The translations under genes were made by a program, and so were the position numbers. A stretch of 64,000 bases of DNA, taken from contig WHVD01000005.1 of NCBI GenBank assembly GCA_015178975.1, positions 1,426,001 through 1,490,000 of the forward strand, in the 5' to 3' direction. The DNA comes from Hysterangium stoloniferum. Taxonomy: Eukaryota > Basidiomycota > Agaricomycetes > Hysterangiales > Hysterangiaceae. This document shows positions 8,901 to 41,744 of this stretch, in pieces. Below the pieces are notes generated by a model. The model worked only from the letters and a program-made list of their open reading frames with translations. It had not been told where the DNA came from and made no database searches. How positions within the stretch are numbered: the first letter of the stretch is position 1; every line of letters begins with the position of its first letter.

Positions 8901-9740
8901 TGTTACGACCGGACAATCCCGCCGGACTCTGGGCACTAACCCGTACACCCCCACGCGCTACAAGCACCAATCGTCTGTTTATAGGATTTCCCGCCCGGAC
9001 TCCGTTACGTCAAGACTAGTTACGTTCGACCTCAATATGACACATATCAGTCACCGGACTTCCCCCAGACTCCGTTTCTGTCTATGTCCATCTTCGTCCC
9101 ACGCATCAGTCACTGGACCCCACTCAGAATCCCGTCACTGCTCTAATCAAGCCCCGTTCCCATTTTAGTCAAATGACCTGTCACAATTTAGGACTCCACT
9201 CCCGCTCCATTTCCCGTTATGGGTTATGCTTTGTCACGATTCGGACTCCGCTCCATTCCGTTCCATTCCTAACACCAATTTGGTGTTTACTATTCCCGTT
9301 TCATGTTTTGTTAGTTTCGTTTTGCCATTACTGGATTTGGTATGTCATTCACTCCATGGTCTATATAAACTGGCAGATGTTGTACATACAATCCAGTCAG
9401 AAAATTAGCTTAGATTCCCCCCAGTAATCTAATAACATTTTCCGCTCTAAAACCTTACTTGATTCACATCGCTTTCACTAGTCGGAGCCCACGGGCTCCA
9501 GCGCATCTATCTCTCTCAACTATTTTGACTCACGACCCACGACCTCCAACTTACGACCCACGACCCCCGACTTACAACCTATGACCCACGAACCCCACCT
9601 GGACTCCCCAGGATTCCCATCCGTCCATTTGAAATTGGACAACACGATCTAGCGAGGGCGCAGCCTATAAGCTGAAGCCAAGTCCTACTGGATATCCTGC
9701 AGGTTTCTCCAGAAACCCGGCCTGTATGTGTATCCTAACA
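8901..9740 (+). mobile_element. Solo LTR, family A, uninterrupted reference copy
   Basis: 840 bp, TGTTACGACCGG to TATCCTAACA, with a perfect AAGGG duplication (8896-8900, 9741-9745). It contains a TATA-like TCTATATAAACTGG (9360-9373), probably the LTR promoter, and near its 3' end the motif AAGCTGAAGCCAAGTCC that recurs in families B and H. No internal region adjoins it. Confidence 0.93.
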
Positions 9741-26432: not shown

Positions 26433-27658
26433 TGTGAAGATCCGTTCCTGGAAACTCTTTGGAGTATTTCCCAGATATTATTTCTGGGTCCGAACCATCT
26501 TCTGGACCAGTATCAAGATCCAGAATCCACTGGAACCTGACCCTCATCCCTTCAAGGCAAATCCCATTCTGGTATTCTGCCCTCATTTAGACACCTCCTG
26601 TTATGACCCGGAACTCATCGGACTCTGCCCTTCAGTAGGAGACTTCCAGTCAGACTTCCAGTCAGACTCCCAGTCAGACTTCCAGTCAGACTCCCAGTCA
26701 GACTTCCAGTCAGACTCCCAGTCAGACTTCCAGTCAGACTCCCAGTCAGACTTCCAGTCAGACTCCCAGTCAGACTTCCAGTCAGACTCCCAGTCAGACT
26801 TCCAGTCAGACTCCCAGTCAGACTTCCAGTCAGACTCCCAGTCAGACTTCCAGTCAGACTCCCAGTCAGACTTCCAGTCAGACTCCCAGTCAGACTTCCA
26901 GTCAGACTCCCAGTCAGACTTCCAGTCAGACTCCCAGTCAGACTTCCAGTCAGACTCCCAGTCAGACTTCCAGTCAGACTCCCAGTCAGACTTCCAGTCA
27001 GACTCCCATCTCTGATCTGACTTTCCACCCCAAGTCTCCAATCTGACTTTCTGACATCCACCTCAATATCCGATATGACATCCACCTCAAAATCCGACCT
27101 GACTTCCAACTATGGAACATTTAGTTTCCATATTTCCGAACCTCATCCTTGTTCTGTATTTAGTAACTGACAGGTTAACAGTTATTCATTCGCTTGTTTA
27201 TTGTTCTTGTTGTATTCCCATTTTGGAATCTTCATCCTAATCTGTCTTATTATACTTCTAGATTTATAGTACAATTGCTGGAACATCTATACAGTCTTCC
27301 ATAGCCATGTACTTACTCTTTAGTTTTAATCTCGAATTAGTTTGTATCTTCTGTTTTTCTGTACACTCAATCTTCAGAACTCTCTGGACTCTGGATATCC
27401 AGAACTCCCAGAACTTCTGAGTATCCATAAACATTCCAACATATATTCATCCTCTGAAATATGGACACCCAAGTGAGTGCATGAGGGTGCAGCACATAAG
27501 CTGAAGCCAAGTCCATCTGTACTCTGGTAATATTCCGATACTCCCATTACTAATCCCTGGAAACTCCTGGACTAATTCTCTGAAACTCTGAGGACATATT
27601 TCTGGGAAGTGTCCAGAATATCCATCAGAAATTCTGCCCCGAGATCCGGAACTTAACA
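26433..27658 (+). mobile_element. Solo LTR, family H, enlarged by a minisatellite
   Basis: TGTGAAGATCC to CGGAACTTAACA, with a perfect GGAGA duplication (26428-26432, 27659-27663). It is 1226 bp, longer than the roughly 896-bp copy at 2074-5052, mainly because of the 24-bp tandem array at 26640-27006. The 3' motif AAGCTGAAGCCAAGTCC is at 27498-27514. Confidence 0.92.
26640..27006. repeat. 24-bp minisatellite inside an LTR, about 15 units
   Basis: The unit is CAGACTTCCAGT + CAGACTCCCAGT, two 12-bp halves differing by one base, repeated nearly without variation. As 24 is a multiple of three, several frames stay open across it and give Gln-Ser-Asp-Phe or Gly-Ser-Leu-Thr repeat peptides; these are not genes. 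The homogeneity suggests recent expansion. The family H copy at 2074-5052 lacks the array. Confidence 0.95.
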
Positions 27659-31000: not shown

Positions 31001-31424
31001 ACAGGAGTAGATTCTCTATAGTTGTGGATATTAGCAGGGTCAACTTACCAGAAGCACTTAGGAGGAACTCTGTTTCTGGGTGGATTGCGATGTGGTTGAG
31101 GGGGAGGACTTGGTGAATGCTTAGAAGCAGAATCAGAGCTAGAGCCTGAATCAGGAGCCAAAGCATTACCCTGATCATCTCCCACCTGATTTGGTTCCTG
31201 TGGAGCTCCCACCTGATTAGAATGAGCTCCCACCTGAGTAGACCCAGAGGGGCCAGGAATAAACATATCAATGAATTGTTGGGTATCAGGAAAAATCTTA
31301 GGAATAGATGGTGGTGGTGGTGATGGTGTAGTCTGCTTAGATAGTCCTGGCAAAACTCTCTCATCAAAAACAGTATTATTACTGACTATAATCTTTTCAG
31401 TCAGTGGATTGTAAAATAACCAAC

Positions 31425-32248
31425 TGTTAGGGTACATACATGGCAGGTTTCTGGAGAAACCCGCAGGATATCTGGTAGGACTTGGCTTCAGCTTATAGGC
31501 TGCGCCCTCACGAGATCATGTTGTCCAATTTCAGACAGGTGGACGGGAATCCCAGGGAGTCTGGGCAGGGTTTGTGGGTTGAGGGGTCATAGGTCAGAGA
31601 TCGTGGTAGAGAGGTTGGGGAGTCAGGATAAATAAGAGAGATAGAAGCGTCGGAGCCCACGGGCTCCGACTAGTGGGAGTAGTGTAATTCAAGGAGGAGT
31701 TTAGAGCGGAAAATGTATTAGATTACTGGGGGGAATCTAAGCCGATTTTCTGACTGGATTGTATGTACAACATCTGCCAGACTATATAGACGGTGGAATG
31801 AATAACATACCAAATCCAGTAATTATGAAATGAAACTAGCAAAACATAAAATGAGAATAGTAAACACCAAATTTGGTGTTAGGAACGGGACGGAACAGAG
31901 TGGAGTCCAAATCATGACAAATCAAAAACCATAATGGGAAATGGAGCGGGAGCAGAGTCCAAATCGTGACAGGTCATTTGACTAAAATGGGAACAGGGCT
32001 CAGTTAGAGGGATGATCGGTTTTCTGAGTGGGGTCTGGTGACTGACGTGTGGGATGAGGTTGGACATAGACAGGGACGGAGTCCAGTGGGTATTCTGGTG
32101 ACTGATACACGACATAACAAAGTCGAACGTGGGCAAGTCTGATGTACGGAGTCCAGCAGGAATTCCGGTAAACTGACAATCAGTGCGTATAGGGTGCAGG
32201 TGCATATAAGTTAGTGCCTGGAGTCCGGCAGGAATTCCAGTCGTAACA
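31425..32248 (-). mobile_element. Family A 3' LTR of the chromovirus
   Basis: 824 bp, reverse of the LTR at 8901-9740, ending ..CCAGTCGTAACA at 32248. The flanking pentamers do not match, as expected for one LTR of an element rather than a solo LTR. The shared motif lies at about 31470-31508. Confidence 0.85.
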
Positions 32249-32333
32249 GTACCCTCCCTTTATGCCAAAGTCCCAAAGAGGCTCTAGACCTAGATAAGGT
32301 TCTTGTCGGCTATGTGCATGTGTCAAAAGTCAT

Positions 32334-32763
32334 TGTCATGAATCAATTATTCTTCAATAAAGTCGAATAATATTCTACTAATCGAACTCGAAAGCCTCGT
32401 TCGACGAAGTATATATTCGCCCTGTTGATGAAGTAAGAGGCTGTTACCAGTCACGAGAACTCACAGAAGTATTTGTCGAAGAAGTTACGACAAGATAGAT
32501 TACTAATATCACTAATATACAGATATTTCAACTGACTTCCCTGGCTCCTTTCGTAGCCCTTTTATGCTTTTCGTCGTATTGTTATGACTATGTTATGAAC
32601 TAATTATGAAATCATACATGACGTCGAAATGAGACATGTCGAAAGAGATTCGATGTTGTTGAATAATGTTTGGGTTTGTCAAGTCGAATTCAATAGGTCG
32701 AAGAGTTGTCGAAAGTTACCTTTGAATGTTTGTGACAATATGTGACATGTGACGGTTGTGACA
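32334..32763 (+). mobile_element. Solo LTR, family F, second copy
   Basis: 430 bp, TGTCATGAATCA to GGTTGTGACA, with a perfect GTCAT duplication (32329-32333, 32764-32768). It is exactly the length of the copy at 7733-8162 and inserted in the 3' region of the chromovirus. Confidence 0.93.
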
Positions 32764-32828: not shown

Positions 32829-32842
32829 GAGCCTATATAAAA
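32829..32842 (+). promoter_or_regulatory. TATA-like box ahead of the antisense frame
   Basis: GAGCCTATATAAAAAT lies about 60 bp upstream of the ATG at 32894, at a suitable distance for a polymerase II start. Inference from sequence only. Confidence 0.4.
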
Positions 32843-32893
32843 ATTTGAAAAAATGAAATTTCTTCTTCTTTATTTCCCCCAACTTTGTGCTAA

Positions 32894-33874
32894 ATGGGTC
32901 CAAAACCAACACCACAAAGGCCAATGCCAACCGCCAGGCCCTCCACGGGTAATGTTTACTGGGCACCGCTCACTGCTGCCCAAATTTTGGTGCAGTGGGA
33001 GGAACAATGATGACAATGAGAGGAGGTGGAAAAGGAAGCCAGGGAGGTTGAGGAGGCCCTGGATAGGGAATACCAGGCAGCCTTGGCCATGGAGAAAGCA
33101 GCTGAGGAGCAGAGGAAGAGGGATGAGGAGGAGGCTGCGTGAGTTGCCATAGAGAAAGCCTGGGCAGCTGCGGAGAGGGCTGTGGTTGTCGCGGGCAAAG
33201 TAAGTCTCAACTTGTCGTTTTTTTTTTTGACTGACTTGGCATTTTCAGCACAAGGCGACAGAGGTTGAGTCCAAGTCCAAGGGGGAGCCGGAGAGTCCCC
33301 AAAGGTGAGTCTCGGTCTGTGGGAGCTCCATGGAACTAACCAAATCAACAGAAGGTAAGGAAGGCCGCACCAGTCTGCCTACCAGTACGGAATGACCTGC
33401 AGTGTTCCAGTTGTAATGACTGGAACACTGAATGCAATCAAAAGTCCAGGTGGGGACCGGGGTGCTACCAGTGCATGCATCTCAAAGCGAGGTGCTTGCT
33501 CATTCATGAGCAGCCCATGGGGTCCATGGCATGGGACAACAGCAGGTCAGACGGAAATTCCAGTTTGGAAGAAGTCTTGGGATGGATCGCCAAGGGCATC
33601 AAGGCCCAGAACGAGTTGCTCCAGTATTGTGATGGCGAATGATCTCCGTGAGCTCCGCTCGGAGCATTTCAAATTCCTAGTGGAGTATGGTGGCTACATC
33701 GAGGAGCTGCAGGCTGGGAGTTCTGAGGATGCCGGTTCAGATGAGGATGGGATGCCCACAGAGATAGTGGAGCTCCCCGAGGAGATGGCTGAGGTGGAGA
33801 AAGCTGAGGTGGAGAAAGCTGAGGTGGAGAAAAGGAAGGCGGGGAAAAAGGACAGCCCCATAAATGTAGACTGA
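32894..33874 (+). CDS. Antisense reading frame in the chromovirus, Zn2Cys6-like motif
   Basis: Runs opposite to the chromovirus between its chromodomain and 3' LTR. The start region (MGPKPTPQRPMPTARPST) leads into a long Glu/Ala-rich coiled coil. Around 33400-33505 the frame shows Cys spacing C-x2-C-x6-C-x9-C-x2-C-x6-C (CSSCNDWNTEC then CYQCMHLKARC), which fits the fungal Zn(II)2Cys6 binuclear cluster. The tail is acidic with three tandem AEVEK units and ends at 33874. At least one GT-AG intron is likely, and the copy appears broken in a few places, so it is treated as a fossil. Function unknown; a regulator encoded by the element or a captured host domain are both possible. Confidence 0.6.
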
Positions 33875-36800
33875 AATAAAAATAGAACTTGAGAATAATT
33901 CTTTGAACATAAAAGTGAAGCGTGAAAAACATAAGAATCAAAGTCCACGGGAACTCCACTTAAGGACTTGAAAGACATGTCAGAACCTGTAAAAGCAAAG
34001 AGAGACATAGGGCGACAGGGAATAATGAGAATGAGTCCAAATGTAACATGGGGTCTGTGGAGTGTGGTCAGAGAGAAGATAGTGGTCTGGGTTTGAGTGG
34101 GTAAGCTGTATGAAAGTCAGTAATGATTTCCATGGCATTACCGAGTTCTGTGGCCAAAATCCATGAAGTCTCTTCATCGGTGCCCTCATAACCCACCCAC
34201 TTGACCAAGTAAAGCAGTTTACAAGTGCGTCGACGCTTGTCGATTTTCGAATCTAAAATTTGTGAGATTTCAAACTCGGGTTCTCTGTCAATAATGACCG
34301 GAGGAGGTGGAGATTGCATGCAATCCGGGATAGTGTTAGCAGTACAAGGTTCTAACATTGAAACATGAAATATCGGGTGTACCACATGCATGCTATCCAG
34401 AAGCTGTAGGGTCCAAGAGACTGAACCTACTTGTGTGATAATTTCAAAAGGACCTAAATATTTTTCAGCAAGCTTTTTTGATGAACGGGTAGTCTGGAAG
34501 AATTGAGCTTTGACAAAAACACGATCGTCAATCTTGAAGTTGGGTGGTGGAATCCAGTGTTTGTATGCTGAAAGTTGGTATTGCTCTTGGGTGGACTTTA
34601 TTGCAGTCCAGAGTTCCTCGTGGAGCTCATGGAGGTCTGTGGTGAACTCTTGAGCATGGGTGGAGGCGAGATTTCATTCTGGATGTACTGTAATATTTGG
34701 ATTATATCCTTTATTTGCGAAGAATGGGGAAACACCGGTTGTGGCTGAGGGTGCATTGTTGTAAGCAAACTCTGCAAGTGGTAACAAGGATTTCCAATTG
34801 TCCTGTTGATAATTGCAATATACACGGAGATATTGTTCCAATGTCTGATTGACACATTTGGTTTGTCTGTCACCTTCCAGGTGATGTCCAGACGTGAAAT
34901 ATAATTTCATGTCCAAGGATTTCCCAAGGGATCTAAAGAAGTGAGACACAAACTCTGATCCTTGGTCGGAAGTTACATGGGATGGAAGTCTGTGCTTGGA
35001 AAATATGTGGATAATAAAAAGTTCTGCTAACTGCACGGACGTAATTGTATCATGTGTAGGGATGAATATACCTTGTTTTGAGAATCTGTCAACAGCAACT
35101 AGAATGGCAGAAAAGCCTTCGGAGTCCAGTAGGTGTTCAATGAAATCCATAGAAATAGAATTCCATGGGTGTTCCAATACCGGGAGTTGTTTCAAAAGGC
35201 CATATGGCTTGTGTCACTGAGATTTCAAGTGGGGACAAGTAGTGCAAGATTTTACAATAGTGCTTAATGAATCCACGGAGTCTGGGCCAAATGTATTCTC
35301 TTCTTATTAATGATAGAGTTTTGTTGTACCCAAAATGTCCTGAGAGTGGATGATCATGTTTGTACTGAAGGATCCTGAGGCGGAGGCTGCCGGAGTCCAG
35401 TACATAGATCCAATCGTCAAGTCTAATGAAACCATGCTGATCAAGAGACCACCAGGGTTGATTGGGGTCCACAGGATTGTCAAGGTGTGCTTTAGTAATT
35501 GGGTCAAGTGGAATTGCCAATAGAATATCTTGATGTAACTTCTCAATATCCATAATGATAATTCCACGGACAATGGGATGCATGAGGAAAGTTGTGTGGA
35601 CTGATGCGGTAAGTTGCTGATTTGTGAAAATGGGTTTCAGGTTATGCGGGTTTACTGTGGCATAGTCGTTGCTCCCCCTCTTTAGGATAGACATCCCATC
35701 ATCTAGTTAAAGCGTTGGGTTTGCCACCAAGATGGCCGGGTCGAAAACGGATAATCATATTGAAAGCAGATAGATATTCAGACCAGCGGGCCTGCTGACG
35801 GGTCAAAAGTTTTGTAGTAGAAAAGTATTCCAGGTTTTTGTGATCTGTTACAATGTCAATTGGAGTTCCCGAGCCTTCCAAATAGTGTCACCATGTTTTG
35901 AAAGCTGAAACAATTGCCAGGAGTTCCTTATCATGAATGTCATAATTGAGCTCTGCTCTGGTAAAAGTCCAGGACAGAAAAGCCATGGGGTGGACTTCTC
36001 TATTGGAGTCCTGGATTGACAGAATGGCTCCAAGTGCATAGTCTGAGGCGTCTATTTCAACAATGAGTGGGAAGTCTGGTTTCCAATGTGACAGAATTGG
36101 AGCTGATGAAAAAGAATTTTTTAAAAGATTGAAAGCTTTTTGACAGTTATCATTAAAATTCCACGGAGTATCCTTACACATAAGATGGGTAAGGGGAACT
36201 GTGATATCAGAATATCCGTGGATAAACCATCTGTGAAAATTGGCAAAGCCAAGGAAGGATTGTATATCTTTAACTTTTCAGGGTTCAGGCCAATCTTTGA
36301 TGACTTGCACTTTAGTTTCATCCATGTAGAGTCTGTTGGGTCCCATTATGAAACCCAGGTATTCCATGGAGTCCGTGTCAAAAGTACATTTTTTACCATT
36401 CACAAATAAACCATATTGTCTGAGTCTCTGGAAAACTTCACGGACTTGTTTGTCATGTTCCGCGGGATTCTCGGAGTAGATAAGAATGTCATCCAAGTAA
36501 ACAATGACACATACATCGAGCATGTCGGAGAAAATGTCGTTGATAAAACGTTGAAAAACAGACGGAGCATTGGTGAGTCCAAAGGGCATCACCAACCACT
36601 CAAAGGCCCCATAGTGGGTTCTAAAAGTGGTTTACCATTTGTCGCCTGCAGAGATCTGGACCAAGTGATAGGTGTGTTTGAGGTCTATTTTGGTGTAAAT
36701 CCAGGCATTCTGTGGAGCATCGAGCAGATCAGATATAAGTGGGAGTGGATACTTATCCTTTTTTGTGACAGCATTGAGTCCTCTGAAATCAACACATAGT

Positions 36801-39193
36801 CTAAAGGATCCATCCTTTTTTCTGACAAAGAGAACAGGTGCTCCAAAAGGAGACTTTCAGGGTCTGATAAAACCTATGGACAAATGTTCATCCAGGAAAT
36901 CACAGATTGCGGAAAGTTCTGTGGACGAGAGCGGGTAGATATGTCCTAGGGGTGGCTGGGCACCTTCTTTGAGATCGATTTTAAGTCGTATTCTCTGTGG
37001 GGCAGAAGCCGGTCAGCTTTCCACTTGCTAAAAACATCTGCAAAGTCATGATATTTCTCCAGGATGCCTTCTAGGTCAGCGGCTTGCTCAGATGTGGATA
37101 CTGGGGTTGAAAAACGACCAGTTGCTTCATCAATTTTTAGGTTGATAGTGAACGCCTGGGACCCATCCATTTTTGTAGCCCTAATAAAAGCTGCAGCATT
37201 AATCAGAGAAATAGACGGAGGTGCCGTGGGTTCTGGGTGTGAGAGGTATGGCAAAATATGCTCAGGAAATATAGTCTGGATAAGCCCATACTATATTCCC
37301 ATTATTATTTCTTCTTTCTCTCTATTCTATTATACACTTATATTAGTTCGACGACCTATGTATACGGTACATTGACTCTTGTGGGCGCATACACACCAGA
37401 CTCATGTATTCTAGTGCCCGTAATTAGAACTCAGACACTTTTTTACCCCGCAACCACGACTTACCCAGACACACAGTTAGTGTCCTGTAAGTTGTGATTG
37501 GGGTATCGTCTCGACCGTCACAGACGGGCTTCAACTATCTACACAATCAGAGTTTCAAACTGTGCCAGTCAAAACTCCACTTATATCTCGATCTGCATGG
37601 ACCACATCCACACTACTCTATTATTCGACTCTCATTATTCTTTTCTACACTCGAGCAGTCATTCGGAATCGCACCTAACGGTCAATTCCCTTTATTCGTT
37701 TTAGTTATCTACTCTACCTTAGATAGTTACTTCACTCAGACGTATTGAACTAAATAGTCAATACTTGTTCAGTGTGTATTAGACTTAGACAGTCAATACA
37801 ACTACATGTTGTACCTAAACGGTCGATATTCTTCGTATATAGAACGGTTAGAACTTCCACCACTCTTCACAGTGGTGATCCAGGCCGGACCGCTCCTTCC
37901 CTATGAAGAAAATGTTACTCTACGACTATTAATTTCTAAGCACGTAAATGACCACTGGCAAGAACTAAACACCGAGATCTTCAACAACCCCGAGTAGTTC
38001 AAAACCTTGTCAAAGACCTGCAAGTCTGGAACCACCCCATAACGTCACCATGAGGAAGTCTTCATTGACTTTTCAAAAACCAGTTCTTCCTGGAAGTTCC
38101 CCCAGAGCAGCAGCTGGACCGTCAATGGATACTCCCCCAGGTCCACATGAAGAACATCCATCAACTGGGCAGTTGAGCACTCCTGGAGCTAATGCCGAGC
38201 CTACCTGTGCTCCCAAACCCGTTCTCTCATTCCTGCCTAGGCAGGTCATCCTCGCAATTCTTTGGGGGTCATATGGTTTACGCTGAGCCCATCGATTTGC
38301 AATGGGATATGTACTACGCCAATCGAATCTCTGCAGATCAGGTTACTCCCTTTGTCGAGGAGTACAATACAGATTACCCTTCTTTACCGGTGACTGTAGC
38401 AGTCTGGTTAGGTCATTATCAGGCCATCTTATCAGCACAGGACTTATTCATGCAACCAGGAACCCTTGAGGATCTGACCCCCTCGATTCCCAAATGGTTG
38501 AGTGAGGTTACTTCTGTTATGGAAGGAGGAAGGATGATTTTTAAGCAGGAAGTGTTCTCTTTATTCCTCAAAGCACTCCATGCACATGATGATGTGTTGC
38601 AAATCCTTCACGTCCTACTCGGTGGGGACCACATCGTGCCCAAGGTTGACTACCAGTATATATACATCCAGATGTTGGAGGAATCTCTTAACAGGGTCAC
38701 TCAAAATTCATTGTTCACGTATTTTACTCTAAGGGGTCAGTTGAGGTGAAATCAGAGGAGACTCAATAAGATGGTTTTGGAAGTGCTCCACCCTTATAAT
38801 AACTCGATCCAAGTGCCCGATTTGCCCATCTCCACAACTAGTTCGTTTGTTTGTAACCTAAATGGGTCTCCTGACACTTGTTTCCTTCATTCGCTCAATC
38901 GTCCCGTTATTTTACAAGACTTCCTGTTGGATATGAGGATGCAAGTTGCAGACCATCTTCAGGAAAAGGGGATGGAAATCTGCACTCCCTTCCACCAACC
39001 TCAGCCATGTCGGCCTTTGAATACGATCAAAATTGAGAGAGAAATCTCGAAGGAACTTAGCCCGGCACCCACCAGGGAATTCATCACTCTCGCGTCGCAT
39101 TCAAATGAATTTCAGATAATCCTAACTTCGGTGATGAACTACCCACGACTAGGAATAGATCAGTCACCAACAGGGGTCGAGCGTCCTCCTCTA

Positions 39194-41744
39194 CAGTCGC
39201 CTCCCTCATAACCCATACCCCAGATAACCCATACTCCCTCATAGCCCATACATTTTTGGATTTCCTGAGTTGGTATACAGTAATTTTGTAACTATAACCC
39301 ATACCCCATAACCCATACCTATTTTGAGGAGGATAACCCATAGTTACAGTGATGTAACGCCAAATCAGGAAATTATATTATGTAATCAGTATCTCTTAGG
39401 ATTCCAATATGGCGACAATGTCAAAACCTCAGCTCTTCTGGCTCCCACATCATTATGAAACCAGTTGACACTCTAAAAAATGGATTAAAGAAAAGCTGCA
39501 AGATCAAACACATAGCCGGAAAGCTGCACTTGAGGCCACCCTGAAGGCTAATCAGCCAATTTCAGAGGTTGATGAAGAGTGGTTAGATAATGCTGGGAAT
39601 TTGGTGGACGAAGAGCATGTGGTTGATGAATTGGACAAGGCTCTGGATTATGAAAGTGCTCTCAAAAGCTTGGATTTACAGGACAAGTCCATTGTGCAGA
39701 AGTTAACAGAGCTTGCTGCAAATGGTGACAAAAGTGTTGCTCCTGTGAGGAAGGGCAAACGTATGGTTTTCAAGAATTTCAACATTTGAGATTCAAGGTT
39801 ACTGAGTCTATCACAGGTCCAGCACAGCCTGTCAGCACGACTGTTGAACAGCAAAAATATGCCCAGCCAGTCAAAACTCATAAACAAGAAAATGCCTCAC
39901 TTGAACAACAAATTGAAATTCTGAACTGGCATTATGCCAATGGTGAGAATCAGACCAAAACAGCCAACCATTTTGACAAAATCTATCCCACTCTCCATCT
40001 CACTCAACCAAGAATTTCAGCATGGATCAAGCACAAGGCAACATGGCAAGCGGAGTATGAGAGCAGTGTGGGATTGTCTCGTTCTGTGAAGTGAGTGTGC
40101 CGGACCCAACATCCAGAGGTGACAGAAATGCTGGATCTTTGGGTTTCAAAGGCAATGGCTGATAAGCTCTTGCTGATGGGCAAGGTTCTCCGCCAAAAGT
40201 GGAAGGTATTTGCTGACCTTGCTGGTGTACCAGAGGATGAGCATCTTGGTTTGAGTGAGGGGTGGCTTAGTCGATACAAGGCACGAAATGGCTTGAGGCA
40301 GACAAAGTGTCATGGTGAAGCAGCCTCTGCAGCCTCTGACACTGTTGACAAGGAACGGTTGCAAATTCAAGAGTTAATCAAAAAAAGTGGCTACAGATCA
40401 TGTGACATTTTCAATGCTGATGAGTCTTCGCTGTTTTATGCGTATGTGTCTTTATTTCAAATCGTCACAAATCTCAACTCAATTTTAACAGTATGCCTCC
40501 TGATCGAGGACTCTCTGACAAGCAACAATCTGGCATCAAAGGCAAAAAGACCAGATTAACTTATCTCTTCACAGCAAATGCAGATGGCTCACGAAAATTG
40601 GCCCCGCTTATCATTGGGAAGGCATGGAAACCTTGAGCCTTCAAAAACAAGACAGGATCTCAACTTGGCTTCAACTATCGAAACAATGCAAAAGCATGGA
40701 TGACAGCTATACTTTATCAGGAGTGGTTGTTAGATTGGGATGCTAAGCTCAGACAGGAGGGAAGAAAAATCCTCCTCTTGCAAGACAACTTCTCAGGCCA
40801 CATTGTGCCAGATGGTCTCACAAATATTCACATTGAAAACTTCGAACCAAATCTACCTGCACACATCCAGCCCAATGACCAGGGAATTATTCATTGCTTC
40901 AAAGCCCATTACTGGAAGAAATTCATTCAGCATGCTATTGACCTCTATGAATCTGGAATCACTCCTTCACAGATCTATGATATTGACCAGCTCAAGGCAA
41001 TGCGCCTTGCTGATGAAGCATGGAATGAAGTGGACACTACCACAATCCAAAACTGCTGGCACAAGGCTGGTATCTTACCAGACTTTGACTTGCCTCCCAT
41101 TCAACCATCTCTTCCTCTTCCATCCTTGTTCACACTACTTTCAACCCCACAACTCTTCAGGATCCTATTTCACAAGCTGAGAAGCTTGTCGAAAATGCTC
41201 TGGATGATTTGGAGTTGACTGGTGCTCTCCAATGCTCGAATCGAATGAACATCACAGAGCTCCTCAATCCCGCTGCTGAAGTCCACAATGTCTTTGATGC
41301 AACAGATGAGGATATATATCAAGCGATTATGGATGCAAAGAAAGTGCAGGAGGAGTCATCAGGTTGGGGAGTGGGCGACAATTTAGATGATGACACACCT
41401 ATTGAGCAAGCACCTACACGGAGTGAGGCTCTCCAGGCAGTGCTGTTGCTGCAAAAGTACATAAAGGATCTCAATGATCCTTTCACTCATAAGTTAGATG
41501 TGATGTTAGGCTCATTTGGGCAGAGGACACGCACAAAGGAGATGCAGGGCATGAAAGATAGCAAACTGACTTCTTATTACCCTCGTAAAGAGCATTGATA
41601 TTTGTAGTACACTGCTAGACAAACATATATGAAAGCCTGAATTTTTGTCCTGTCCATACCCAATCTCCCGTAAACCCCATACCCCCTCATAACCCATACC
41701 CCATGGTGAAAACCGAGGGGTATGGGTTATGAGGGAGGCAACTG
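39194..41744 (+). mobile_element. pogo/Fot1-type transposon inserted in Gypsy gag
   Basis: 2551 bp with 28-bp terminal inverted repeats differing at one position (left CAGTCGCCTCCCTCATAACC, right tip CAGTTGCC), flanked by TA (39192-39193, 41745-41746). Inside the ends are further CATAACCCATAC repeats in both directions, likely transposase-binding arrays. It carries one CENP-B/pogo transposase gene. Complete as an element but with an inactivated gene. Confidence 0.95.
39409..41598 (+). pseudogene. pogo/CENP-B-like transposase, DD30D, inactivated
   Basis: Likely start at 39409 (MATMSKPQLFW). A psq-type helix-turn-helix (about 39890-40060) and a CENP-B-type DNA-binding region (about 40110-40320) precede the catalytic core: FNADES (Asp 1), LLLQDNFSGH (Asp 2), HIQPNDQGII (Asp 3), with 30 residues between Asp 2 and Asp 3. 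Two GT-AG introns fit the frames: 39761-39816 (56 bp) and 40442-40491 (50 bp, restoring FYAMPPDRGL). Damage: TGA at 39466-39468, 40092-40094 and 40634-40636, each readable as a changed CGA, and a frame change near 41110-41130. The C-terminal part ends at 41598. Confidence 0.9.

What the first reader, a model, noticed from the sequence alone, without database searches (positions are those of the whole stretch)
32894..33874. Antisense zinc-cluster ORF inside a chromodomain Gypsy element
Between the chromodomain end of pol and the 3' LTR of a minus-strand chromovirus lies a plus-strand frame with its own TATA-like box, a coiled coil, a C-x2-C-x6-C-x9-C-x2-C-x6-C motif that fits the fungal Zn(II)2Cys6 binuclear cluster, and an acidic AEVEK-repeat tail. 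Additional antisense ORFs are known from some plant Gypsy elements. I am not aware of a described fungal chromovirus carrying an antisense zinc-cluster frame. It may be an element-encoded regulator or a captured host domain.
Basis: partly seen in the sequence, partly recalled or inferred. Interest (0 to 1): 0.72.

Follow-up and report, generated by a model that had tools for sequence, protein, structure and literature searches.

The report
Antisense zinc-cluster gene in fungal retrotransposon
A very abundant and recently active fungal jumping gene carries, on its opposite strand, a small spliced gene for a likely DNA-binding protein that natural selection has kept, and that may let the element control its own switch region.

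Summary
The antisense frame is real and belongs to the element. The window copy is broken (stops, frameshifts) and has two introns. The segment recurs genome-wide: 150 of 150 scored candidates matched, a capped list. In 21 of 21 long loci it lies just inside the LTR, with the pol-side flank in 20. It is present at 36 of 38 examined youngest pol ends. In a young copy with identical LTRs it is an intact 294-aa spliced gene opposite gag-pol. Over 49 copies its frame is under strong purifying selection (N/S about 0.13 outside CpG contexts) and each of six Cys is kept in at least 48. The cluster is a weak, half-swapped relative of Zn2Cys6, below Pfam's cut-off in 14 of 14 proteins. The gene is about 2-4 times more diverged than adjacent pol. 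The LTR carries repeated CGG-N3-CCG palindromes. Best reading: an element-encoded nuclear regulator acting on its own LTR. Similar antisense genes are known in plant Gypsy elements and HTLV-1; ten searches found no fungal zinc-cluster one. Transcription and DNA binding are untested.

The parts
31424..32248 (-). LTR of the minus-strand chromovirus copy (its 3' LTR; plus-strand right end = start of U3)
   Evidence: matches the LTR of L049, whose two LTRs are identical over 821 bp
31901..32227 (.). U3 array of five CGGAGTCCG-type palindromes (CGG-N3-CCG, here CpG-decayed) at 31901, 31953, 32077, 32147, 32219; candidate regulator sites
   Evidence: positions 478, 530, 654, 724, 796 of the LTR; enrichment tested on the L049 LTR; binding is inference
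32249..32261 (-). polypurine tract next to the LTR
   Evidence: read by eye
32334..32763 (.). 430-bp insert, solo-LTR-like (TGTCA...TGACA), GTCAT on both sides; not part of the family
   Evidence: termini read by eye
32834..32843 (+). TATA box of the antisense gene, about 60 bp before its ATG
   Evidence: a TATAWA lies within 61 bp of the ATG column in 45 of 49 copies
32894..33199 (+). exon 1: N-terminus and long charged, helix-prone (coiled-coil-like) segment; carries stops in this copy
   Evidence: composition of the L049 product; no coiled-coil predictor was run
33200..33248 (+). intron 1 (GT...AG, CTGAC branch-like site)
   Evidence: GT in 48 of 49 and AG in 48 of 49 copies
33249..33304 (+). 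exon 2: acidic then basic linker; frame lost in this copy
33305..33351 (+). intron 2 (GT...AG, CTAAC branch-like site)
   Evidence: GT in 47 of 49 and AG in 47 of 49 copies
33352..33874 (+). exon 3: basic patch, Cys cluster, helix-prone region, acidic tail, stop codon
33403..33495 (+). six-cysteine cluster C-x2-C-x6-C-x9-C-x2-C-x6-C
   Evidence: each Cys kept in 48 or 49 of 49 copies; weak Pfam Zn_clus match in relatives
34068..37237 (-). decayed pol of the same copy (RT, integrase, chromodomain) ending about 190 bp from the convergent antisense stop; its upstream part is missing here

Best explanation
The segment is an antisense gene that belongs to a very abundant chromodomain Gypsy element of a fungus. 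It is transcribed from its own TATA promoter, placed between the polypurine tract and pol and pointing towards pol, and is spliced twice (both inferred from conserved signals). The product, about 294 aa, has a charged helix-prone segment that probably dimerises, a basic patch that may send it to the nucleus, a six-cysteine cluster with the spacing of the Zn2Cys6 cluster but with the basic half second, and an acidic tail. The most likely role is a DNA-binding regulator of the element itself. Its probable sites are the repeated CGG-N3-CCG palindromes of U3. In the 5' LTR these lie upstream of gag-pol; in the 3' LTR they lie beside the antisense promoter. One protein could so set both gag-pol transcription and its own level. 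Shown: a gene of the element, spliced-gene anatomy, selection, an intact frame in young copies, the palindrome array. Inferred: transcription, zinc and DNA binding, the LTR as target, the sign of regulation.
For: Gene of the element. Intact in a young copy (L049) with identical 821-bp LTRs, a 5-bp duplication GCTGA, open gag (431 aa) and pol (1285 aa, nine Pfam families). Protein coding on the plus strand: N/S 0.126 and 0.127 over 49 copies, other plus frames 1.5-4.0; 0.109 and 0.137 in the 16 loci that also gave pol. Introns: GT and AG in 47-48 of 49 copies, lengths in all three remainders of 3. Six Cys invariant in the 14 clean exon-3 proteins aligned and each kept in 48 or 49 of 49 copies. 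Zn_clus matches in 14 of 14. Basic and acidic segments. CGG-N3-CCG 5 seen in the L049 LTR against 0.45 expected, 0 of 1000 shuffles reach 5; decay-tolerant CGGAGTCCG in 18 of 18 near-complete LTRs examined, three to five sites in 17 of them and one in L023.
Against: No RNA or protein evidence was available. All 14 proteins score below the Zn_clus cut-off (7-20 bits against 21). AlphaFold2 gave low-confidence models (pLDDT 41.9 and 53.7), so the fold is unknown. The CGG test looked at 39 site classes; five further classes, among them CGG-N4-CGG, are also enriched, so no single spacing is singled out. The LTR is CGG-rich overall (55 in 821 bp, about 67 per kb, against 47 per kb inside), the palindromes sit partly in longer repeats, the LTR copies are related by descent, and no LTR of an element without the gene served as a control. 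One young element (L067) has lost the gene and one (L065) most of it, so it may not be needed in cis.
Confidence: 0.55

Rival explanations
1. The protein is a self-encoded repressor (copy-number control or superinfection immunity): made by resident copies, it shuts the LTRs of its own kind, and new antisense alleles let an element escape residents.
For: Of the stretches examined the gene is the most diverged although its protein is conserved: mean non-CpG divergence 0.095 in the gene region against 0.039 in the pol end over 16 loci, with weakly related distances (Mantel r 0.15, 230 of 2000 permutations as high); the peak covers the gene. Transversion N/S is 1.03 in the pol end but 0.137 in the gene over the same loci, so pol differences look more post-insertional and gene differences older. 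Ty1 copy-number control (starts of the abstracts of PMC7055915 and PMC8458377 in a listing) shows that an element may encode its own restrictor.
Against: No sign of repression as such; protein change is restrained, not accelerated, and the Cys cluster hardly varies. The pol figure rests on few silent transversions (38 pairwise differences) and transitions in pol do show selection (0.234). An acidic tail more often goes with activation (recalled).
Confidence: 0.2
2. The protein acts outside transcription, for example as a nucleic-acid-binding accessory in particles, nuclear import or integration beside the chromodomain.
For: Cys clusters and basic patches also serve RNA binding (recalled); fold unresolved.
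Against: Spacing and weak Zn_clus match favour DNA binding; a separate promoter and spliced antisense gene fit a regulator better than a particle part. Gag already shows a CCHC-like stretch by eye.
Confidence: 0.15
3. A chance or decaying open frame, or a host gene or other transposon that landed here.
For: The window copy itself is broken.
Against: Selection in one frame, conserved introns, same position in the long loci, intact in young copies.
Confidence: 0.02
4. The conserved thing is the antisense RNA, which silences gag-pol, the protein being secondary.
For: The antisense unit lies wholly within the element's transcribed stretch (sequence).
Against: Silent sites change freely while amino acids are kept.
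Confidence: 0.05

Closest known systems
Antisense TRP28 genes of plant Retand Gypsy elements, and antisense ORFs of maize Grande, rice RIRE2 and Silene Retand (PMC11963269: abstract, Background, Discussion and passages seen)
   Same: Gypsy element; gene antisense, between pol and 3' LTR, in nearly all recent copies; suspected DNA-binding regulator. The Grande protein is nuclear, and the title of the cited Grande paper says it is transcribed from its own promoter.
   Different: Plant, non-chromovirus lineage; TRP28 domain, not a six-Cys cluster. The paper's main text has no hit for 'intron', 'zinc' or 'fung'. Homology to TRP28 was not tested.
HBZ of HTLV-1 (start of the abstract of PMC6237760 in a listing; passage)
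   Same: Antisense gene of a retroelement with a spliced form; nuclear protein.
   Different: bZIP protein of an animal retrovirus; no sequence relation claimed or tested.
Fungal Zn(II)2Cys6 transcription factors (Pfam PF00172)
   Same: Cys spacing; basic residues in one half; weak profile match in 14 of 14.
   Different: Cluster internal, after the helix-prone segment; basic half second (profile order swapped); below the family cut-off.
Fungal chromoviruses surveyed in PMC2864245 (passages only)
   Same: gag, pol and chromodomain architecture; [quoted passage not shown]
   Different: The words 'antisense' and 'opposite' do not occur in its main text; the orientation and content of that additional frame were not visible to me, so it could be a relative.

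Membership tests
Chromodomain Gypsy (chromovirus) | gag, then pol in order PR-RT-RH-INT with C-terminal chromodomain | tested here: met
   (L049): Retrotrans_gag; RVP_2, RVT_1, RNase H, H2C2, rve, SH3_Tf2-1, Chromo 2.6e-6
Chromodomain Gypsy (chromovirus) | LTRs TG...CA and target duplication | tested here: met
   821-bp identical LTRs TGTTAG...TAACA, duplication GCTGA
Fungal Zn2Cys6 family | C-x2-C-x6-C-x5-12-C-x2-C-x6-8-C spacing (recalled) | tested here: met
Fungal Zn2Cys6 family | Pfam Zn_clus score above 21 bits | tested here: not met
   14 of 14 exon-3 proteins below it, highest 20.3 bits (L056)
Fungal Zn2Cys6 family | basic first half, then second half | tested here: not met
   best stretch: motif half 1 on profile about 16-34 in 12 of 14, motif half 2 on profile about 2-16 in 2 of 14 (L021, L024)
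Fungal Zn2Cys6 family | two-zinc fold and CGG binding | not testable with these tools
   AlphaFold2 models too weak
Antisense accessory genes of plant Gypsy elements (Retand TRP28 type) | antisense frame between pol and 3' LTR in most recent copies | tested here: met
   36 of 38 examined youngest pol ends
Antisense accessory genes of plant Gypsy elements (Retand TRP28 type) | TRP28 domain homology | not tested
   no TRP28 sequence was at hand

The most novel reading that the evidence does not exclude
A fungal retrotransposon carries an exchangeable antisense 'control cassette': a spliced gene for a permuted zinc-cluster protein that reads palindromes in its own U3 from between two promoters, with old, diverse alleles shuffled by recombination onto one nearly uniform pol chassis, as expected if the cassette decides which resident copies can silence or activate which newcomers.
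Probability: 0.15. Interest if true: 0.9.

Novelty: new variant of a known kind. Interest (0 to 1): 0.7.

Why it matters
Antisense genes in LTR elements are known in plants and in some retroviruses, those of plants with unknown roles. Here is one in a fungal chromovirus with very many copies, a clear gene structure, strong selection and a candidate DNA-binding domain and target. It makes testable whether LTR elements encode their own transcription factors, and why such a gene can be far more diverged than the pol beside it. It would also mean that some small zinc-cluster 'host' genes annotated in fungi may belong to transposons (inference).

Tried and rejected
Chance frame, host gene, nested transposon: rejected. 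A gene on the opposite strand of this segment: two minus frames gave N/S 1.5 and 5.1 for transitions (3.7 and 10.5 for transversions); the third gave 0.158 and 0.69, the shadow expected where its silent positions coincide with those of the plus frame. Solved-structure search with the exon-3 profile: four chance-level hits, best E 0.054. Viral contigs: 38 pattern stretches, none a relative by tblastn. AlphaFold2 of exon 3 and of the cluster alone: too weak to use, so no fold search was run. Host Zn_clus genes: 42 places at E 0.001 or better in this genome and none in the 14 control genomes, which fits a fungus; none was compared with the antisense protein. Ten paper searches listed no fungal antisense zinc-cluster gene; only listings and the papers named here were looked at, and the library lacks most subscription papers. 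A paper on extra ORFs of bdelloid rotifer elements (PMC5408684, passages) had nothing on antisense genes of this kind. The species was not identified. More distant families with the gene, or its presence in other fungi, could not be searched: no other fungal genomes are held.

Corrections made on checking: bits of all 14 Zn_clus matches were looked up; the whole-gene matches beside pol ends were recounted; two pol ends near contig starts stay unexamined.

Full report
What was checked. The finding says that a plus-strand zinc-cluster frame lies between the chromodomain end of pol and the LTR of a minus-strand chromovirus. I read the region, listed frames, located the window in its own genome (C441:1426001-1490000 of a 111-Mb, 554-contig assembly), and fetched copies.

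The segment belongs to the element. A DNA search with 32894-33874 scored 40 of 789 first-look candidates and listed 54 matches at 40 places. A protein search with the exon-3 part of copy L029 scored 150 of 1249 and all 150 matched at 70% identity or more; by my hand count of that table 117 of the 150 have no stop in the matched stretch. Both lists are capped. In 20 ten-kilobase loci (L009, the window's own place, included) plus L049, the gap between the PPT-side flank and the gene is 122-129 bp in 20 of 21; the window has 561 bp because of a 430-bp insert. The pol-side flank follows at 112-172 bp in 20 of 21, L015 being the exception; in L010, L012, L014, L016 and L024 only 25-80 bp of it are there before an interruption. 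From the other side, the 40 pol ends most like that of L049 were compared with the gene lists: 31 have the gene, 28 of them by a match over the whole gene and three by exon 3 only. Of the seven fetched, four have the whole gene, one has it as far as the contig reaches (L063), one keeps only its end (L065) and one has lost it between promoter and pol (L067). That is 36 of 38 examined.

The gene. Aligned copies show two short introns on the plus strand with GT, AG and CTRAY-like branch sites. Over 49 copies intron 1 has GT in 48 and AG in 48, intron 2 GT in 47 and AG in 47; a CTRAY site lies near the end in 40 and 48; intron lengths fall in all three remainders of 3. Introns in this orientation cannot be spliced from the genomic RNA, so they survive retrotransposition (established knowledge). 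In L049 the spliced frame is 294 aa and uninterrupted, beside open gag and pol frames with the expected domains, identical 821-bp LTRs and the 5-bp duplication GCTGA. L050, cut by its contig end, carries the same 294-aa protein. L029 also reads through (297 aa), its second intron having an unusual donor in the alignment. The window copy is broken: stops in exon 1 and frameshifts around the Cys motif. Many old copies are decayed, with changes that look like CpG to TpG or CpA (by eye); the tests below therefore leave out CG, TG and CA contexts.

Selection. Outside those contexts the diversity in the first set of 38 copies is 0.065, 0.062 and 0.206 at codon positions 1, 2 and 3, and 0.113 in introns. 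Over 49 copies N/S is 0.126 for transitions and 0.127 for transversions in the gene frame; the other plus frames give 3.2 and 4.0 (transitions) and 1.7 and 1.5 (transversions). All three exons show the third-position excess. Codons read as stops were left out of these counts. Pairs of copies are not independent; codon resampling with 15 random copies, 20 times, gave 0.09-0.19 and 0.07-0.39. The six Cys are each kept in 48 or 49 of 49 copies, and all six are invariant in the 14 clean exon-3 proteins aligned (15 were clean, L050 being left out as identical to L049).

What the protein may be. The order is: proline-rich start, a segment of about 80 residues that is 89% A, E, K, R, Q or L, a linker with basic runs, the Cys cluster with net charge +4, a second helix-prone region, and an acidic tail of net charge -10. 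Pfam finds no family above cut-off. Zn_clus matches 14 of 14 exon-3 members, all below its cut-off of 21 bits; the best is L056 with 20.3 bits, E 6e-4. In 12 of the 14 the best stretch puts the first half of the motif on the second half of the profile, and in L021 and L024 it puts the second half of the motif on the first half of the profile. So the basic half, C-x2-C-x-H-L-K-x-R-C, comes second: a half-swapped cluster. Structure predictions were too weak to help, and the solved-structure search gave nothing.

A possible target. The L049 LTR holds five CGG-N3-CCG sites against 0.45 expected in dinucleotide shuffles (0 of 1000 reach five). Five other CGG spacings are enriched as well (at most 13 of 1000 shuffles). 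The core CGGAGTCCG recurs at like-placed sites (about 477, 529, 654, 724, 796) in the 18 near-complete LTRs compared when CpG decay is allowed for: three to five sites in 17, one in L023. In L049 itself the exact core occurs three times in the 821-bp LTR and four times in about 6.5 kb of internal sequence. Zn2Cys6 proteins bind paired CGG triplets (recalled). This is suggestive only: 39 site classes were looked at, the LTR is CGG-rich, the LTRs are related by descent, and other repeats are present. The array lies in U3, between a TATA-like box for gag-pol (by eye) and, in the 3' LTR, the antisense promoter.

An unexpected pattern. Of the stretches compared (LTR, gene, pol; gag was not), the gene is the most diverged. 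Against L049, 100-bp bins outside CpG contexts give 0.01 just before the promoter, 0.10-0.21 in the gene, and 0.01-0.07 in pol; parts of the LTR reach 0.13. Against the window copy the gene bins give 0.05-0.09, the LTR and pol bins 0.02-0.04. Over 16 loci the mean is 0.095 for the gene region and 0.039 for the pol end, and the two distance tables are only weakly related (Mantel r 0.15; 230 of 2000 permutations as high). In the same loci transversion N/S is 1.03 in the pol end and 0.137 in the gene; transition N/S is 0.234 and 0.109, and the pol transversion figure rests on 38 silent pairwise differences. The simplest reading is that these copies share nearly one pol but carry older, separately evolving antisense alleles, as recombination between elements would give. 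A locally raised substitution rate is not excluded.

Comparison. Antisense genes between pol and the 3' LTR are typical of plant Retand elements and known from Grande and RIRE2 (PMC11963269, abstract, Background, Discussion and passages). HBZ of HTLV-1 has a spliced antisense mRNA (listing of PMC6237760). A fungal survey mentions an additional frame of unknown function in a figure legend, which I could not see (PMC2864245, passages), and another survey of fungal LTR elements has no hit for 'antisense' or 'zinc' in its main text (PMC3248453, passages). None of the ten search listings showed a fungal antisense zinc-cluster gene. I therefore call it a new variant of a known kind.

How sure. That it is an antisense gene of the element: about 0.97. 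That its product binds DNA in the nucleus: about 0.65. That it acts on its own LTR: about 0.45. Activator or repressor is open; the acidic tail leans to activation (recalled rule of thumb), the allele pattern to mutual control.

Noticed in passing
L049:687-1669 against L049:1900-2880; loci L009-L028: The antisense gene is about 2-4 times more diverged between copies than adjacent pol although its protein is conserved; gene and pol distances are only weakly related. Suggests cassette exchange by recombination.
   Followed up: partly
window 32334-32763: 430-bp solo-LTR-like insert with TG...CA ends and GTCAT on both sides, between the LTR/PPT and the antisense promoter of the window copy; similar sequence occurs in L019 and L027.
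   Followed up: partly
window 37237-37871: 635-bp repeat at the point where similarity of the window copy to other copies ends; the same repeat lies at other places in several loci such as L012, L020 and L024.
   Followed up: no
window 8901-9740: A lone stretch 88% identical to the whole L049 LTR, probably a solo LTR of the same family.
   Followed up: no
window 26568-27092: Long array of a 12-bp unit (31 registered copies) that stays open in several frames, coding SDFQSDSQ-like repeats on one strand.
   Followed up: no
L067 (C212:641700-642952): A young element (98% identical flanks) that lacks the antisense gene between promoter and pol: a deletion derivative.
   Followed up: no
L049:529-584: Two 27-bp direct repeats (85%) just upstream of the antisense TATA box, possible promoter sites.
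   Followed up: no
window 39786-41598: Plus-strand frames resembling a pogo/CENP-B-type transposase (recalled resemblance, frames; not searched).
   Followed up: no
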